From assembly GCA_001792535.1 (NCBI GenBank), contig MGGS01000004.1, positions 1-34,419 of the forward strand: 34,419 nucleotides of DNA, given 5' to 3'. Position 1 is the stretch's first letter; the number at the start of each line of letters is the position of its first letter. The notes beneath the pieces were generated by a model. The model saw only the letters and a list, made by a program, of their open reading frames with translations, made no database searches and was not told the origin of the DNA. The DNA comes from Candidatus Woesebacteria bacterium RIFCSPHIGHO2_02_FULL_42_20 (GTDB lineage: Bacteria; Patescibacteriota; Microgenomatia; UBA8517). The position numbers and the translations under genes were made by a program. This document shows, in pieces, positions 2 through 30,943 of this stretch.

Positions 2-97
2 ACTCCGCAGCAAAGAATTGAAGACTGGATACTTGCAAACAGGACACAATCAACCCTGCCCGATGTCAACGAAACCCTGATACTGTACACTACTTGA
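2..97 (+). CDS. 3' end of an unidentified gene (truncated by window edge)
   Basis: The frame beginning at base 2 is open for 31 codons and ends at TGA 95-97. It reads as a plausible protein tail (QQRIEDWILANRT...). The start lies outside the window. I do not recognise the family. The stop overlaps the TTGACA that serves as the candidate -35 box of the following toxin-antitoxin operon, a tight packing seen elsewhere in the window. It could also be a chance open frame, since only 96 bases are visible. Confidence 0.35.
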   Translation, partial: TPQQRIEDWILANRTQSTLPDVNETLILYTT

Positions 98-132
98 CAC
101 AAATGATCGCTACTGTAATAATATTTATTACA
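94..132 (+). promoter_or_regulatory. Promoter and palindromic operator of the first toxin-antitoxin operon
   Basis: TTGACA lies at 94-99 and a -10-like TAATAT at 119-124 (spacing 19; TAATAA at 116-121 gives 16). A perfect 8-bp inverted repeat, TGTAATAA/TTATTACA with a 3-nt spacer, covers 114-132 and ends directly before the ATG at 133. Ribbon-helix-helix antitoxins usually repress their own operon by binding such palindromes. The expected transcription start falls almost at the start codon, so the message may be leaderless. Confidence 0.6.
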
Positions 133-378
133 ATGAGCGTAAATACACCTACACAGAACCGCCAGATTATAACAATCTCGCTTCCTTTTTTTATGCTTCA
201 AAAGCTTACCAGAATTTCCAAAAAGGAAAGGAAAACGAGAAGCCAAGTAATCAGAGATATGATCGAGAAATACGAAACTGACAGCATCTGGGAAGAAATT
301 TACAAATGGGGATCGGATACAGCGGCCGAGTTCAACATCAAAAGCGAAGAAGATATCCTCAAAATTTTAAATGACTGA
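133..378 (+). CDS. Ribbon-helix-helix (CopG-like) antitoxin
   Basis: This is an 81-residue antitoxin-like protein. A short beta strand (QIITISLP) is followed by two helices containing RKTRSQVIRDMIEKY, the classic ribbon-helix-helix pattern of DNA-binding antitoxins. The C-terminal half (WEEIYKW... to the end) is the probable toxin-binding tail. The ORF track starts at a TTG (94), but that TTG is part of the likely -35 box. The ATG at 133 follows the operator palindrome directly, so I chose it. The gene overlaps the downstream PIN gene by 8 nt, which indicates translational coupling. Predicted role: neutralise the PIN nuclease and repress the operon. Family call from sequence pattern; target unknown. 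Confidence 0.8.
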   Translation: MSVNTPTQNRQIITISLPFFMLQKLTRISKKERKTRSQVIRDMIEKYETDSIWEEIYKWGSDTAAEFNIKSEEDILKILND

Positions 379-784
379 CCGCCCGAAAGTAGTCCTTGAT
401 ACAAACATATATTTATCAACAATTTTATTCGGAGGAAATCCAAGAAAAATCATCAGCCTAGCAAAAAGCAAAAAAATAGAAGTTTTTATATCTCCGAAAA
501 TTCTGTTGGAAATATCAGATAAGCTCTACGGCAAGTTTAGGTGGAACGAGGAACAAATAAAACAGGTCATAAGGGCGATCGGAAAAATTTCTAGCGTTGT
601 AAGGCCAAAAGTGAAATTGTCTGTCGTCAAATCCGACCCAACAGATGACAAAATCATCGAGTGCGCAATGGAATCAGAAGCGAATTTCATTATTACAGGT
701 GATAAACATCTATTAGATATCAAAAAATACAAAAAGATTAAAATATTAACCCCGGAAAGGTTTTTGAATAAAGTGAAATTTTGA
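371..784 (+). CDS. PIN-domain ribonuclease toxin (PIN_3/COG1569-like)
   Basis: The protein has 137 residues and the PIN fold acidic residues: VVLDTNIYLS near the N-terminus, a Glu in LLEISDKL, DPTDDKIIECA in the middle, and ITGDKHLL near the C-terminus. PIN toxins are Mg-dependent RNases that cut tRNA, rRNA or mRNA when freed from the antitoxin. The gene overlaps the ribbon-helix-helix antitoxin and shares its promoter. It ends one base before the convergent mutM stop codon. The pattern fits the PIN_3 subgroup better than classical VapC, but the RNA target cannot be read from the sequence. Confidence 0.85.
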   Translation: MTDRPKVVLDTNIYLSTILFGGNPRKIISLAKSKKIEVFISPKILLEISDKLYGKFRWNEEQIKQVIRAIGKISSVVRPKVKLSVVKSDPTDDKIIECAMESEANFIITGDKHLLDIKKYKKIKILTPERFLNKVKF

Positions 785-12961: not shown

Positions 12962-13336
12962 TTAGTAAACTACGACACCCGGGATTTTGGAGAAGTGTTT
13001 TTTGTTGATGGTCAGAACAGTTCCGCCCAAAGAAAATGCTGTGGCGGCAATTATGCAATCTGCAGCTTCGATATCTTTTGTCTGATCTCTATAAATTTCA
13101 GCGGCTCTTTTGGCAATATCCCAGCTAAGATCTACTTGTTGGAAATATTTTTTGAAATTATTAATTTTCTTTTCAACATTACTTCGTCTTGAACTTGAAC
13201 CCAAGAAGAGTTCAAACACAACTATCGTAGGCAAGAAAAGTTTAGAGTCAGAATCTACACTTTCAAAAAACTCGTCCCACTTTTTTCCTCCTCTAAGCTT
13301 GTCAATAAGTATCGAGGTGTCTATTATAATGTTCAT
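12962..13336 (-). CDS. vapC: VapC-like PIN-domain toxin
   Basis: The 124-residue PIN ribonuclease has IIIDTSILIDKL with the first catalytic Asp, VFELFLG with the conserved Glu, and DIEAADCIIAATA with the central acidic pair. The C-terminal position usually occupied by an Asp reads TINKKHF, as in many VapC proteins. It overlaps the Phd-like antitoxin through TAATG and is followed 13 nt later by pduO. The toxin target is unknown. The module separates the reductase gene from its cofactor enzyme. Confidence 0.9.
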   Translation of the reverse strand: MNIIIDTSILIDKLRGGKKWDEFFESVDSDSKLFLPTIVVFELFLGSSSRRSNVEKKINNFKKYFQQVDLSWDIAKRAAEIYRDQTKDIEAADCIIAATAFSLGGTVLTINKKHFSKIPGVVVY

Positions 13337-13602
13337 TAATACCTGCTTGCCCTAGCTAGCCAAGTTTTAGATTTCCTACCCCTTAACGGGCTTTTACTCA
13401 AGTCATAATCCTTTAAAATCCCATGAGCGGCATCCATTGCTATTTTAAGCCCTTTCCAATCTACTTTTGTTTTTCTCGGCACTATGGCAGCAACAAGCTT
13501 CCTGTCTTTTTCAACCAAAACTTGATCGCCCAAAGCGACTTTCTCCAAAAGCTCAAAAAAGTTATTTCTGGCGTGAGTTGCTGACACTCTAATTGTCTGC
13601 AT
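13336..13602 (-). CDS. Phd/YefM-family antitoxin
   Basis: The 88-residue protein begins with the Phd/YefM pattern MQTIRVSATHARNNFFELLEKVALGDQVLVEKD, the DNA-binding fold of this antitoxin family. The C-terminal tail (KDYDLSKSPLRGRKSKTWLARASRY) would wrap the toxin. Its stop and the toxin start share one base (TAATG). A consensus promoter lies 6 nt upstream of the start codon, with an ATGTACAT palindrome in the spacer that may be the operator. Confidence 0.88.
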   Translation of the reverse strand: MQTIRVSATHARNNFFELLEKVALGDQVLVEKDRKLVAAIVPRKTKVDWKGLKIAMDAAHGILKDYDLSKSPLRGRKSKTWLARASRY

Positions 13603-18677: not shown

Positions 18678-19031
18678 TTATTCGAGATTTGTCTGAAATT
18701 TTTTAAGATCCAAAATAAATTTGCAGCCCTTTAAAAACTCAATTCCAACTAAACTATCCGTACTTTTAGTAAAAAATAATGTTATGTTTTTCACAATTTT
18801 TTTATACCTTATCTTGACTTTGTAAATTGAAAAAACCGTATCAGAACCATCGGCAAGCTCGTAAACTTGATAACCAACAGGTTTTTGCTTGAAGTTAGAA
18901 AGAAATGTCTCGGGCAAAGAAAGGCCCCCAGAAAAACCGGTATCAATTAGACAATCCGCACCCATCCAAGAATTGAGATAAACTTGAATTTTTATACGGG
19001 CTCCGTTTTGAGAATCCAGATAAGGATTCAT
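18678..19031 (-). CDS. Retropepsin-like aspartic protease (clan AA)
   Basis: The 117-residue protein carries the catalytic DTG in the context ADCLIDTGFSGGLSLP, preceded by two beta strands, with LADGSDTVFSIYKVKIRYKKI and LVGIEFLKGCKFILDL following. The size fits a single-domain retropepsin that would act as a homodimer. No signal peptide is visible, so it is probably cytoplasmic. It overlaps the small upstream gene by 4 nt, forming a two-gene cassette. Substrate and role are unknown. A second retropepsin-like gene of different sequence is at 29784. Confidence 0.82.
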   Translation of the reverse strand: MNPYLDSQNGARIKIQVYLNSWMGADCLIDTGFSGGLSLPETFLSNFKQKPVGYQVYELADGSDTVFSIYKVKIRYKKIVKNITLFFTKSTDSLVGIEFLKGCKFILDLKKFQTNLE

Positions 19032-19261
19032 TTCAAAATACCCGCAAATCTTCCCACCTGAGTTAAAAAAAACTGTTTTCGGGGAAAGTGTTTTTTTGCT
19101 TTATCAATCGCCTCAATTGGACTTTTACCAACGTAAAACTTACCGGAATTAACTTCAATAGTAACGTATTCACCCGCTTTATACTTTTTCTCAAGCTTGG
19201 GTTTAATTTTATAAAAAATGTCCTTACCTTTTTCTATAATTAACTTTTGCTGGTTTAACAT
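19028..19261 (-). CDS. Small DUF5678-like partner of the retropepsin
   Basis: The 77-residue basic protein reads EKKYKAGEYVTIEVNSGKFYVGKSPIEAIDKAKKHFPRKQFFLTQVG. This resembles the DUF5678 family, in which a short beta-hairpin with a Gly turn is followed by a helix (EAIEKAK). Proteins of this type are commonly found directly before retropepsin-like genes. Here the overlap with the protease gene is 4 nt, so the two are coupled. I infer a partner, substrate or inhibitor of the protease; a toxin-antitoxin-like logic is possible but unproven. Confidence 0.65.
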   Translation of the reverse strand: MLNQQKLIIEKGKDIFYKIKPKLEKKYKAGEYVTIEVNSGKFYVGKSPIEAIDKAKKHFPRKQFFLTQVGRFAGILK

Positions 19262-19995: not shown

Positions 19996-20490
19996 CTATA
20001 CCAATCCCACCTTACAACCCTCAAAAGCACTGTCGATCGCATTAACAATTTTGTCAAATCTATCCTCGGCTTCGGCTAAACCAATCGCATTGCGCTCACC
20101 CGGAAACCAGTGAAAGATTAAATTGCGACTTTGCTTCCAGGTATCCCAAAGTTGATCAGCCAACTCCTTTCCGTGACAAAAATTTACCAGCTTGTCATAT
20201 ACACCCTCCTTTTCCCTTATCCCCTCTTCCAGAGACGGATTTAAAGCCCTGCCTATTCTAAACCTTTTGCCAAAATATTCATCCTCGCCGATAAACCCCA
20301 AGTCATAGAACAACTTTTTAAGAAAGCCTTCATACGCTTTGGCCGCAGGAAATACCATGAATGCATAATCGTGATACTTGTCTTTCCACTCCGGCACGCG
20401 AGTCAAAAGCTTCATAGATTGGTTAAGCAACTCCTGCAGGTCTTCTTCCAAATAGCTCCACCAAGGTTTAGTTTTTATATCCATCTTCAT
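19996..20490 (-). CDS. Helical protein of unknown function (weak RnlA-like resemblance)
   Basis: This is a 164-residue soluble, mostly helical protein. Notable stretches are YAFMVFPAAKAYEGFLKKLFYDLGFI, GKELADQLWDTWKQSRNLIFHWFPG and a C-terminal helix. The AYEGFLKKL and RNxxFHW pattern vaguely recalls the C-terminal domain of RnlA (RNase LS) toxins, but I would not assign that. I start at the ATG at 20490 (MKMDIKTK), preceded by AAAAGG. The longer track ORF overlaps the divergent penicillin-binding gene and its promoter. It shares an overlapping bidirectional -10 region with that gene. Confidence 0.65.
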   Translation of the reverse strand: MKMDIKTKPWWSYLEEDLQELLNQSMKLLTRVPEWKDKYHDYAFMVFPAAKAYEGFLKKLFYDLGFIGEDEYFGKRFRIGRALNPSLEEGIREKEGVYDKLVNFCHGKELADQLWDTWKQSRNLIFHWFPGERNAIGLAEAEDRFDKIVNAIDSAFEGCKVGLV

Positions 20491-20499
20491 GCCTTTTAG

Positions 20500-20507
20500 A
20501 GTATAAT
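20500..20507. promoter_or_regulatory. Overlapping divergent -10 elements
   Basis: AGTATAAT gives TATAAT on the plus strand (7 nt before the PBP ATG at 20515) and TATACT on the minus strand (9 nt before the ATG at 20490). The two hexamers share four bases. Both predicted transcripts would begin at or near their start codons. No good -35 box was seen on either strand. Confidence 0.55.
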
Positions 20508-20514
20508 CGACCTC

Positions 20515-22692
20515 ATGAAAAAGAAAAAGTACAAGCGTTTCAAGAAACTTAGCCGTAAACAAAAAATATTTCTGATTTTATTGGCTGGTTTTATTTTAAT
20601 CTGCATGTATCTGTTTTACGACATTCCTTCGCCATTTAATTTAAATTCCGATCAGATATCCGTTTCTACCAAACTAATGGACCGAAACGGCAAACTTTTT
20701 TACGAGATTTATACCGACGAGAGAAGAACGCCGATAGAACTAACCGACTTACCACCTTATGTAATCGAGGCCACACTTGCGATTGAAGACAAAGATTTTT
20801 ACAACCATCACGGCTTTTCTGTTTCTGGAATAACAAGAGCGTTTTATAATACACTATTCCGTGGAAAGCTCCAAGGGGGCTCTACCCTGACACAACAGTT
20901 TGTCAAAAACGCGCTTTTGACACAAGAGAGGACGATACGCAGAAAGGCCCAAGAATTTGTCCTGACGATTGCTGTCGAACTTGTTTACTCCAAAGATCAA
21001 ATACTAGAGATGTATTTAAATCAGATTCCTTATGGCTCGACTGCATACGGAATACAAGCCGCATCCGAGCTTTATTTCGGCAAAAATGCCGAGGACTTAA
21101 GCGTTGGGGAAGCAGCTCTTCTCGCCGGCCTACCCGCGGCGCCTACTCGTTTTTCTCCATTTGGTGCAAATCCTCAATCTGCCAAAGTAAGGCAAGAACT
21201 TGTCCTTGCACAAATGAGAGAGGAAGGATTTATTGACAAGACTGAAGAAACTTTTATTAATAACGAAAAACTAAACTATGCCGACATCGAAGCTCCCGCA
21301 GCCGCGCATTTCTCGCTTTGGGTAAAGGAATTGCTTGTCAATAAATACGGCGAAAAACTGGTCGAGAAAGGCGGGCTTCGGGTGACAACAACGCTTGATA
21401 TCGACCTACAGGAATTTGCCCAAGAAACCGCGCGGGGGGAAATTGACGACTTGGCCAACTTTAATGTCAAAAACGCAGCCGTCCTGGTCACTAAACCCGA
21501 AACGGGAGAAATACTGGCCATGGTCGGGTCAAAAGATTGGAACGCCGAGGACGAGGACGGAAGGGTAAACATCATTTTCGCCAAACGCCAACCGGGGTCA
21601 TCAATCAAACCGATTAACTATGCTCTGGCAATTAAAGACGGCAAAATCACACCGTCGACCGCGATAACAGACGTCCCTACTTGTTTTTCTGTCACAGGCC
21701 AAGCTCTATATTGTCCCGGAAATTATGACGGATCATTTCACGGACTAACACAAGTCCGCTTTGCCTTGGGTAACTCATACAATGTACCTGCAGTCAAAGT
21801 CTTGGCTTTAAACGGGATTGAAAACTTTATCGGCTTTGCCCGGGACATGGGTATCACAACTTTTGAAGACCCCGCCAAATACGGCCTATCCCTGACTCTT
21901 GGCGGCGGTGAGGTACGGCCATACGACATGGCTGTTGCATTCGCTGTTTTTGCAAACTCGGGCGTCAGGCAAAATCTCAACCCGATTCTAAAAGTCGAAG
22001 ACTGGAAAGGAAAAGTTTATGAGGAGTTCGACGTGAGTAAGGTGGAGGGTATAAGAGTCCTTTCACCTGACGTCACTTTTCTAATTTCTCACATTCTCCA
22101 CGATAACAACGCCAGAAGCGACGCTTTCGGCGCCGGGTCACTGCTTAATGTCCGCGGACACGGAGAGGTTTCGGTCAAAACAGGAACGACCAATGATAGG
22201 AGGGACAATTGGACAATTGGCTACACCAAAGACGCACTCGCGGTTGTCTGGGTAGGAAATAACGATAACACGCCAATGAAAGGCAGTGTCTCCGGAGTTT
22301 CGGGTGCTTCCCCAATCTGGAACGCGGTAATGAGCGAAGCGCTCGAAAAATATGAACCGGAAGAAAACCACCCCTGGCCAAAGGCGCCAGATACCATCAT
22401 CGGAAGAAGTGTCTGTTGGACGACAGGTTTGCTTTCCCCGGGCTCCGGGACCTGCCCCGAACGTTTTGAATACTTTCTACAAAACTATTTGCCCGATGCC
22501 GATTCCGGTATACGGCAAGACATTCCTGTTGACAAAACCACTCACACGGTCGCAAGGCCGGATACCCCGCCTGAAAACATCGAAATTCAAAACCACCCAG
22601 TCTACTATGACCCTTTAAAGACAATCTATTGCCTTGATTGCGCAATCCCGACCCAGTCAATTACCATCCGCTATCCACTTGGTGAAAATTAG
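20515..22692 (+). CDS. Class A penicillin-binding protein (transglycosylase/transpeptidase)
   Basis: The 725-residue bifunctional peptidoglycan synthase has a basic cytoplasmic N-terminus and one transmembrane helix (about residues 17-36). The GT51 transglycosylase domain has EDKDFYNHHGF and GGSTLTQQFVKN. The transpeptidase domain shows the SxxK nucleophile at S362 (GSSIK), the GNSYN box and KTGTTND at K555. A Cys-containing C-terminal extension follows (CWTTGLLSPGSGTCPERF). The enzyme polymerises and crosslinks the wall at the outer membrane face. Its 3' end overlaps the convergent serine hydrolase gene by 36 nt. Confidence 0.96.
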   Translation: MKKKKYKRFKKLSRKQKIFLILLAGFILICMYLFYDIPSPFNLNSDQISVSTKLMDRNGKLFYEIYTDERRTPIELTDLPPYVIEATLAIEDKDFYNHHGFSVSGITRAFYNTLFRGKLQGGSTLTQQFVKNALLTQERTIRRKAQEFVLTIAVELVYSKDQILEMYLNQIPYGSTAYGIQAASELYFGKNAEDLSVGEAALLAGLPAAPTRFSPFGANPQSAKVRQELVLAQMREEGFIDKTEETFINNEKLNYADIEAPAAAHFSLWVKELLVNKYGEKLVEKGGLRVTTTLDIDLQEFAQETARGEIDDLANFNVKNAAVLVTKPETGEILAMVGSKDWNAEDEDGRVNIIFAKRQPGSSIKPINYALAIKDGKITPSTAITDVPTCFSVTGQALYCPGNYDGSFHGLTQVRFALGNSYNVPAVKVLALNGIENFIGFARDMGITTFEDPAKYGLSLTLGGGEVRPYDMAVAFAVFANSGVRQNLNPILKVEDWKGKVYEEFDVSKVEGIRVLSPDVTFLISHILHDNNARSDAFGAGSLLNVRGHGEVSVKTGTTNDRRDNWTIGYTKDALAVVWVGNNDNTPMKGSVSGVSGASPIWNAVMSEALEKYEPEENHPWPKAPDTIIGRSVCWTTGLLSPGSGTCPERFEYFLQNYLPDADSGIRQDIPVDKTTHTVARPDTPPENIEIQNHPVYYDPLKTIYCLDCAIPTQSITIRYPLGEN

Positions 22693-29783: not shown

Positions 29784-30140
29784 ATGGGAATAACAACAAT
29801 CCCGGTAACGCTTACGGATCTAACTGAAAAGAAAAAAGTAAACGCTGATTTTCTGGTCGACACAGGCGCAAGTTATACCGTTGTACCGGCCAGATTTGCA
29901 AAAAAACTCGGGTTAAAAGTCGATAGAAAACAAAAATTCAGTCTGGCAGATGGAACTATCATGGAAAGAGGTCTAGGATTTGCTGTTGTCGAAATTGAAG
30001 GTAAAAAAGCACCGTCCACAGTTGTTATCGGAAAGGAAGGAGATTCTCCGCTTCTTGGTGCCCTGACACTAGAGAATTTAGGACTCATGGTTGACCCTTT
30101 CAGCCGAAAACTTCGCCCCATGAAGTTAATGCTGGCCTAG
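29784..30140 (+). CDS. Retropepsin-like aspartic protease 2 (clan AA)
   Basis: The 118-residue single-domain protein has FLVDTGASYTVVP, the classic DTGAS of aspartyl proteases, then LADGTIMERGLGFAVVEIEG. GALTLENLGLMVDP matches the hydrophobic-Gly flap/strand of the family. It lacks a signal peptide and is probably cytoplasmic, likely a homodimer. It sits between the secreted-domain paralogs and a toxin-antitoxin pair with its own strong promoter. Unlike the copy at 18678 it has no small partner gene. Substrate unknown. Confidence 0.85.
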   Translation: MGITTIPVTLTDLTEKKKVNADFLVDTGASYTVVPARFAKKLGLKVDRKQKFSLADGTIMERGLGFAVVEIEGKKAPSTVVIGKEGDSPLLGALTLENLGLMVDPFSRKLRPMKLMLA

Positions 30141-30252: not shown

Positions 30253-30525
30253 ATGATAAGTCAACTTACCAGAATTCAAGTTTATGTCGAACCGAAGAAT
30301 CTCGCGGTCGTAGATGAAATTGCAAAGGAAATCAAAATAAAAAGGTCTCAAATAATTAGAGATGTTGTTGCTAGTGTCGTAAACTCTTACGTAAAAACGG
30401 CCCAACTTTTAAAGATAGATAAAATAAATAATCTTAAAACATGGCTTGAACTCAAGGGAGCCGAGGAGAGTAAACTCAAGGATTTAGGTTTAAGAGTCGA
30501 TGAGATCTACAATGCAACTACCTAA
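30253..30525 (+). CDS. Ribbon-helix-helix antitoxin
   Basis: The 90-residue protein starts with a beta strand (TRIQVYVEP) followed by two helices (LAVVDEIAKEIKIKRSQIIRDVVASVV), the ribbon-helix-helix DNA-binding fold. The C-terminal region (LKTWLELKGAEESKLKDLGLRVDEIYN) probably binds the PIN toxin encoded next. The genes overlap by 26 nt. The upstream palindrome supports autoregulation. It is not closely similar to the antitoxin at 133. Confidence 0.82.
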   Translation: MISQLTRIQVYVEPKNLAVVDEIAKEIKIKRSQIIRDVVASVVNSYVKTAQLLKIDKINNLKTWLELKGAEESKLKDLGLRVDEIYNATT

Positions 30526-30943
30526 AAGAGTATTCATTGACACGAGTGCCTGGATTGACTTCACTCTCAAAGGCGAAAAGTATCATCGAGAAATTTCTGA
30601 ATATCTAATCTCAGAGGTCAAAAAAGGAAGTAAGTTTTTTACCAGTGACTACGTATTAGATGAGACGTTTACAAGATTGATTACTGGCCAGAGTTTTGCG
30701 TCTGCAAAAGTTCTCAAAAATAAAGTTAGGAAGTTAGAGAAAGAAAAACAACTTTTGGTACTCTGGACAGACGAAGTGTTTTTCAACAAGGCCTGGGAAT
30801 ATTTCGAAAAATTCTCAGAACACAAACTATCATTTACCGATGCCACAATTTATACGTTCGCGAAAGACTTAAAAATTAACGAGATTCTAACCCTGGACAG
30901 GGGGTTTGAGAAAGTGGGGTTAACTGTACAACCGAAGCTCTGA
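30500..30943 (+). CDS. PIN-domain ribonuclease toxin (VapC-like)
   Basis: The 147-residue protein has RVFIDTSAWIDF, YVLDETFTRL, FTDATIYTFAKD and a final TLDRGF, the four acidic positions of PIN nucleases. It is coupled to the ribbon-helix-helix antitoxin. An alternative start at 30512 (MQLPKRVF) would shorten the N-terminus by four residues and the overlap to 14 nt; the sequence does not decide. RNA target unknown. Confidence 0.88.
   Translation: MRSTMQLPKRVFIDTSAWIDFTLKGEKYHREISEYLISEVKKGSKFFTSDYVLDETFTRLITGQSFASAKVLKNKVRKLEKEKQLLVLWTDEVFFNKAWEYFEKFSEHKLSFTDATIYTFAKDLKINEILTLDRGFEKVGLTVQPKL

What the first reader, a model, noticed from the sequence alone, without database searches (positions are those of the whole stretch)
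18678..19261. Two-gene cassette of a small DUF5678-like protein and a retropepsin
The genes overlap by 4 nt. The small basic protein has no other obvious role, and retropepsin-like enzymes in bacteria are poorly understood. A coupled small partner suggests a substrate, inhibitor or targeting subunit, perhaps a toxin-antitoxin-like or defence-like module.
Basis: partly seen in the sequence, partly recalled or inferred. Interest (0 to 1): 0.5.

Follow-up and report, generated by a model that had tools for sequence, protein, structure and literature searches.

The report
Coupled DUF5678–retropepsin gene pair, antitoxin-like
Two overlapping genes, a tiny protein and a small HIV-protease-like enzyme, travel together across many bacteria and archaea, and the way the pair decays suggests that the tiny protein keeps a harmful protease in check, which would be a new kind of toxin–antitoxin pair.

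Summary
It recurs in Patescibacteria, Methanophagales/Methanosarcinales/Syntrophoarchaeum, Bipolaricaulota, KSB1 and one viral contig. Every high-scoring cytosolic retropepsin of the two linked subfamilies (80 of 80, leaving out four membrane-anchored ones and one at a contig end) has a DUF5678-like gene directly upstream. The reverse does not hold: about 20 intact DUF5678 genes sit beside a retropepsin that is frameshifted, stopped, or has lost its catalytic half, and about 6 have none. In a sister archaeal retropepsin family the overlapping upstream gene carries an RHH DNA-binding domain, as antitoxins do. The two genes co-diversify (Mantel r 0.73 and 0.83). My reading is a toxin-antitoxin-like module: the retropepsin is the harmful partner and DUF5678 neutralises it (probability about 0.5). 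Toxicity, inhibition and substrate are untested. PADLOC already lists retropepsins as component B of two candidate defence systems, but their A models do not recognise DUF5678. I found no paper linking retropepsins to toxin-antitoxin systems.

The parts
19028..19261 (-). DUF5678-like small basic protein, 77 aa (proposed antitoxin/inhibitor); predicted long N-terminal helix then beta-beta-alpha-beta
   Evidence: PF18929 19.7 bits; AF2 pLDDT 89.5; Pandoravirus DUF5678 top hit; pI 10.0
18678..19031 (-). Retropepsin-like clan AA aspartic protease, 117 aa, DTGF subtype (proposed harmful effector)
   Evidence: TIGR03698 40.2 bits; alignment A7; fold of relative L112 matches 5c9f and HIV protease
18933..18944 (-). 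Codons of catalytic motif Asp30-Thr31-Gly32-Phe33
   Evidence: sequence; Asp30, Gly32 and Phe33 invariant in A7
19028..19031 (-). 4-nt ATGA overlap (translational coupling site)
   Evidence: same overlap in 28 of 87 pairs

Best explanation
The two genes form a toxin-antitoxin-like (addiction or conditional-effector) module. Shown: they are an overlapping, co-inherited, co-diversifying pair, and the retropepsin is not found without its upstream partner, whereas the partner is often found with a broken retropepsin. Inferred: the retropepsin homodimer is a cytosolic protease that harms the cell when free; the DUF5678 protein is made first and by translational coupling, binds the protease (probably the active-site/flap face or the dimer interface) and holds it inactive; loss or degradation of DUF5678, for example on infection or stress, would release the protease.
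For: Strict one-way dependence: of 85 retropepsins scoring >=60 bits, 80 have a DUF5678-like ORF directly upstream; the exceptions are 4 membrane-anchored paralogues and 1 at a contig end. About 20 intact DUF5678 genes have a remnant retropepsin (frameshift, stop, or loss of the catalytic half) and 6 have none (hand-classified); with coding-length odds of 0.625 per event, 20 of 20 in one direction has probability about 1e-4 (computed for 19: 1.3e-4). Small gene first, with ATGA overlap. Co-diversification: Mantel r 0.73 (56 pairs) and 0.83 (31 pairs), none of 2000 permutations reaching it. Patchy: DUF5678 in 38 of 380 genomes; up to about 10 copies in one KSB1 genome; present on a viral contig. 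Sister archaeal DTGY retropepsins: 14 of 19 overlap or abut an upstream RHH-domain gene and 4 others a DUF5678-type gene. In L008 the broken retropepsin start is followed by a Phd/YefM- and RelE-like ORF pair.
Against: No toxicity, protease or inhibition data. DUF5678 itself has no recognised DNA-binding domain. The C-terminal domain of the archaeal RHH partners looks like DUF5678 but is not significantly similar; only L249 bridges weakly. L244 has a frameshifted RHH partner beside an open retropepsin. My retropepsin models were built mostly from coupled examples, so the coupling statistic applies to those subfamilies only. Many loci are from metagenome bins, where some frameshifts may be assembly errors. 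The window pair lies among ordinary genes, not a defence island. PADLOC's A-component models do not hit DUF5678.
Confidence: 0.5

Rival explanations
1. Regulated protease holoenzyme: DUF5678 is an activator, chaperone or substrate-recruiting subunit that the retropepsin needs to work, in some housekeeping or stress function.
For: Strict coupling, co-diversification and a 4-nt overlap are also expected of an obligate two-subunit enzyme. Basic pI of DUF5678 could suit substrate or nucleic-acid binding.
Against: An activator would be useless once its protease is broken, and an orphan protease would be harmless; the data show the opposite bias (about 20 broken proteases beside intact DUF5678, 0 of 80 orphan proteases). 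Patchy, multicopy distribution does not fit housekeeping.
Confidence: 0.22
2. DUF5678 is the cognate substrate or trans-acting propeptide: the retropepsin cleaves it, releasing a signal or switching the protease on.
For: 1:1 coupling; many DUF5678 of the larger subfamily end in a conserved hydrophobic tail (VP...PYVG) that could enter an active site.
Against: A dedicated substrate should not outlive its protease, yet it does repeatedly. The tail is absent in the window subtype.
Confidence: 0.1
3. Anti-phage abortive-infection module: the same inhibitor-protease pair, with DUF5678 as the sensor that phage disturbs.
For: Retropepsins match the B components of PADLOC phage-defence candidates PDC-M52 (24 of 34 members) and PDC-M08; intact pair on a viral contig; patchy distribution.
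Against: The A components of those candidates do not recognise DUF5678; the window retropepsin itself matches PDC-M08B only marginally (E=0.005); no defence island around the window pair. I did not survey neighbourhoods systematically.
Confidence: 0.13

Closest known systems
PADLOC candidate systems PDC-M08 and PDC-M52 (component B)
   Same: Two-gene candidate systems whose B component is a retropepsin-like protein; 24 of 34 paired retropepsins match PDC-M52B and 19 match the best PDC-M08B model at E<=0.01.
   Different: Their A models do not recognise DUF5678 (1 of 42 members at E=0.014; none of 15 genomes at the DUF5678 loci). PADLOC records no mechanism and no held paper names them.
Type II toxin-antitoxin modules (VapBC, RelBE; three PIN-type pairs lie in this same window)
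   Same: Small first gene, overlap, co-inheritance, patchy multicopy distribution, partner kept when the effector decays; RHH partner in the archaeal sister family.
   Different: The effector is an aspartic protease rather than a nuclease or kinase; DUF5678 lacks a known DNA-binding domain; toxicity is untested.
APRc of Rickettsia conorii (PDB 5c9f) and other bacterial retropepsins (RloA, RimB)
   Same: Retropepsin fold and DTG dyad; 5c9f is the top structural match.
   Different: APRc is surface-associated (own knowledge) and the RloA proteins carry signal peptides (PMC12239564); no small cytosolic partner gene is reported in the passages read.
PF18929 DUF5678
   Same: Fold and sequence pattern; structural top hit is a Pandoravirus DUF5678 protein.
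   Different: The Pfam family has no assigned function; the window member scores just below its cut-off.

Membership tests
PF18929 DUF5678 | Score above Pfam gathering cut-off (23.2 bits) | tested here: not met
   Window protein 19.7 bits, E=7.4e-4
PF18929 DUF5678 | Homology to members by profile and fold | tested here: met
   Aligns with DUF5678 members over the core; AF2 model top hit a Pandoravirus DUF5678 protein, probability 0.99, TM 0.58, E=0.04
Clan AA retropepsin (A2-like) | D[TS]G catalytic triad and later hydrophobic-hydrophobic-Gly | tested here: met
   D30 T31 G32 F33 and LVG (G96)
Clan AA retropepsin (A2-like) | Retropepsin fold | tested here: met
   AF2 model of relative L112 (pLDDT 92) matches 5c9f at E=6e-7 and HIV-1 protease at E=3e-5; window protein not folded alone
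Clan AA retropepsin (A2-like) | Active homodimer cleaving peptides | not testable with these tools
   No complex prediction or assay
TIGR03698 clan_AA_DTGF | Score above NCBIfam cut-off (57.35 bits) | tested here: not met
   40.2 bits, E=3e-10: related, not a formal member
Type II toxin-antitoxin module | Two-gene overlapping operon, small gene first, conserved as a pair | tested here: met
Type II toxin-antitoxin module | Toxin not found without antitoxin | tested here: met
   80 of 80 cytosolic retropepsins of the linked subfamilies have the partner; one frameshifted partner, L244, in the sister RHH family
Type II toxin-antitoxin module | Antitoxin with DNA-binding domain (frequent, not universal) | tested here: not met
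   No such domain in the window protein; present (RHH) in the archaeal sister family
Type II toxin-antitoxin module | Toxin inhibits growth; antitoxin neutralises by binding | not testable with these tools
   Needs expression experiments
PADLOC PDC-M08 / PDC-M52 | Component B match | tested here: inconclusive
   Window retropepsin 14.8 bits, E=0.005; many relatives match better
PADLOC PDC-M08 / PDC-M52 | Component A match | tested here: not met
   No PDC-M08A hit at DUF5678 loci in 15 genomes; 1 of 42 DUF5678 members at E=0.014 to PDC-M08A and none to any PDC-M52A model

The most novel reading that the evidence does not exclude
DUF5678-retropepsin is the first toxin-antitoxin (or abortive-infection) family whose effector is a retropepsin: a cytosolic HIV-protease-like enzyme held inactive by a cognate protein inhibitor, with DUF5678 and RHH-containing antitoxin variants in bacteria and archaea.
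Probability: 0.4. Interest if true: 0.85.

Novelty: new variant of a known kind. Interest (0 to 1): 0.6.

Why it matters
It would give a function to DUF5678 and to a large set of uncharacterised prokaryotic retropepsins at once, add an aspartic protease to the known effector types of toxin-antitoxin modules, and offer natural protein inhibitors of retropepsins, the family of HIV protease. It makes the question of what small cytosolic retropepsins do directly testable by a simple two-plasmid experiment.

Tried and rejected
Plasmid and phage tblastn with the window proteins and with L031/L130 retropepsins: no matches. Empty-site comparison through the neighbouring Nudix gene: orthologues in the family are too distant (26-36% identity) to test synteny. 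PDC-M08A as a name for DUF5678: rejected. Natural DUF5678-retropepsin fusions: none found; L135/L165 is a deletion joining fragments. Stop-readthrough model of the in-frame pair L112: both domains confident but pTM only 0.67 and no coordinates returned, so no interface is claimed. PDB structural relatives of the DUF5678 model: none significant; sequence-profile hits to chymotrypsin inhibitor 2 (E about 0.7) treated as chance. Homology of the RHH partners' C-terminal domain to DUF5678: suggestive pattern, not significant. Viral scans with DUF5678 queries: none. Two low-scoring 'DUF5678' hits (L010, L107) and MreB-like hits (L014-L016) discarded as false.

Full report
What is there. On the minus strand the window has a 77-aa gene (19261-19028) followed by a 117-aa gene (19031-18678) overlapping by ATGA. 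The first is DUF5678-like: PF18929 at E=7e-4, slightly below cut-off. An AlphaFold model of the window protein built with 52 relatives is confident (pLDDT 89.5; one long helix, then beta-beta-alpha-beta), and its best match in the viral structure library is a Pandoravirus protein annotated DUF5678 (probability 0.99, but E=0.04). No solved structure matches. The second is a retropepsin of the DTGF kind (TIGR03698 E=3e-10, below its curated cut-off) with the catalytic DTG and the later LVG glycine intact. A relative's model matches APRc of Rickettsia (5c9f) and HIV protease.

Conservation of the pairing. In the order of the window, nearly all genuine DUF5678 hits have a D[TS]G protein starting at their 3' end. 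In 380 genomes of the phylum, PF18929 occurs in 38. By my classification of the 48 places, 45 are confident DUF5678 genes: 37 with an intact retropepsin, 4 with a broken one (L035, L048, L049, L064) and 4 with none (L039, L043, L050, L105); three low-scoring hits are doubtful. A scan of species genomes found the window's own subtype in Methanophagales, Methanosarcinales, Syntrophoarchaeum, Bipolaricaulota, KSB1, Gottesmanbacteria, Roizmanbacteria and others, again paired. An IMG/VR contig carries an intact pair (L250 2310-2504 and 2501-2941).

Reverse survey. Searches with retropepsin profiles gave 85 distinct retropepsins of at least 60 bits covering three quarters of the model. Of these, 80 have a DUF5678-like ORF directly upstream, many invisible to Pfam but found with a profile built here. 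The other five are four with an N-terminal membrane segment (L078, L079, L093, L094) and one at a contig end (L166). Retropepsins of other subfamilies, such as the tight DTGA family that includes the window's second retropepsin (29784-30140), have no such partner, so coupling is a property of subfamilies, not of all retropepsins.

Asymmetric decay. Of 121 DUF5678 genes collected, I class 92 as having an intact retropepsin, 20 a recognisable remnant, 8 none (two of these with the DUF5678 itself truncated), and 1 unclear (automatic calls corrected by hand). Remnants include frameshifts or stops (L009, L049, L064, L208, L213, L215), and loss of the catalytic half with the C-terminal half kept (L017, L048, L091, L118, L124, L125, L126, L216). 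In L008 only the first 23 residues remain before a Phd/YefM- and RelE-like ORF pair. I found no intact retropepsin of these subfamilies beside a lost DUF5678. If breaks fell in proportion to gene length (about 125 against 75 codons), 20 of 20 in the protease would have probability about 1e-4 (computes n=15 and n=19). If DUF5678 were an activator, orphan proteases should be harmless and orphan DUF5678 useless, so the opposite bias would be expected. If DUF5678 restrains a harmful protease, this bias is what one expects.

Co-evolution and organisation. Distances of the two proteins correlate strongly within each subfamily (Mantel r 0.73 for 56 pairs, 0.83 for 31; largest of 2000 permutations 0.19 and 0.26; the p-value printed there is the count, i.e. 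1 in 2001). Exactly 4 nt of overlap is the commonest spacing (28 of 87). The modules are patchy and multicopy: about ten retropepsin matches, some broken, in one KSB1 genome; six retropepsin hits in G136, at least five with DUF5678; and two different modules in the window's own genome.

A sister family with a DNA-binding partner. Archaeal DTGY retropepsins found as weak hits were searched in 375 genomes of the phylum of G437. All 19 hits have an upstream gene that overlaps or abuts: 14 encode about 102-122 aa with an N-terminal ribbon-helix-helix domain (RHH_6 above cut-off in L172/L233, weaker in others), one is the same but frameshifted (L244), and four are DUF5678-type (L239, L247, L248, L249; 17.8-26 bits with the profile built here). 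L249 appears to join an RHH-like N-terminus (by eye; Pfam gave no RHH match) to a DUF5678 domain. The C-terminal domain of the RHH group has the DUF5678 pattern but no significant profile match, so I treat that as suggestive. RHH plus a neutralising domain, followed by an overlapping effector gene, is the standard layout of antitoxin-toxin operons (established knowledge).

Comparison with the known. No held paper combines retropepsin and toxin-antitoxin, and DUF5678 occurs in only one, unrelated by its title and abstract. PADLOC-DB 2.0 contains retropepsin models as component B of two candidate phage-defence systems, PDC-M08 and PDC-M52, without a mechanism and without mention in the papers searched. 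Their A models do not see DUF5678. The retropepsin half has thus been flagged as a defence candidate, but the DUF5678 identity, the one-way dependence and the decay pattern appear new.

Mechanism and confidence. Most likely (about 0.5) the retropepsin is harmful when free and DUF5678 is its cognate inhibitor. Shown here: pairing, order, overlap, co-diversification, dependence and decay bias. Inferred: toxicity, inhibition, release. An activator or recruiting subunit (0.22), substrate/propeptide (0.10), or specifically an abortive-infection role (0.13) remain possible. Caveats: metagenome assemblies, models trained mostly on coupled loci, relatedness among loci, and one reverse case in the sister family.

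Noticed in passing
window 29784-30140 (+): A second, complete retropepsin (118 aa, LVDTGASYTV; PF13975 E=7e-12) with no small partner, about 110 nt upstream of an RHH+PIN pair; a third orphan of this DTGA family is at G000:C1:218898-219176.
   Followed up: partly
window 94-784 (+), 12962-13602 (-), 30253-30943 (+): Three PIN-type toxin-antitoxin-like pairs (RHH+PIN, Phd-like+PIN, RHH+PIN) on the same contig, identified by reading only.
   Followed up: no
window 19996-20562 (-): 188-aa protein with sub-threshold matches to HEPN_RnaseLS (E=3e-5) and the RnlA DBD, a possible RnlA-like fragment two genes upstream of the pair.
   Followed up: no
L078, L079, L093, L094: Membrane-anchored paralogues of the paired retropepsins (N-terminal hydrophobic segment) have no DUF5678 partner; they may be a separate, secreted-side branch.
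   Followed up: partly
L091 1903-2401 (also L121, L199); L125; L126: Three unrelated genomes carry deletions that cut out the DTG half of the retropepsin while keeping its start, its C-terminal half and an intact DUF5678 gene; the shortened protein might still be made.
   Followed up: partly
L091 (G203:C50): Two different DUF5678-retropepsin modules in tandem, the second with the catalytic deletion.
   Followed up: yes
L192, L197, L201, L203, L205 (genome G120): One genome with about six LVDTGFDG retropepsins whose upstream ORFs, where present, are not DUF5678; two look by eye RHH-like or Phd-like, which would be further partner types.
   Followed up: partly
L084: A paired retropepsin with an open frame but DSG changed to DSE at the active site: a likely dead protease kept with its DUF5678.
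   Followed up: no
L250 (IMGVR_UViG_3300029268_002474) 2310-2941: Intact DUF5678-retropepsin pair at the end of a predicted viral contig, a few ORFs from what look like structural genes.
   Followed up: partly
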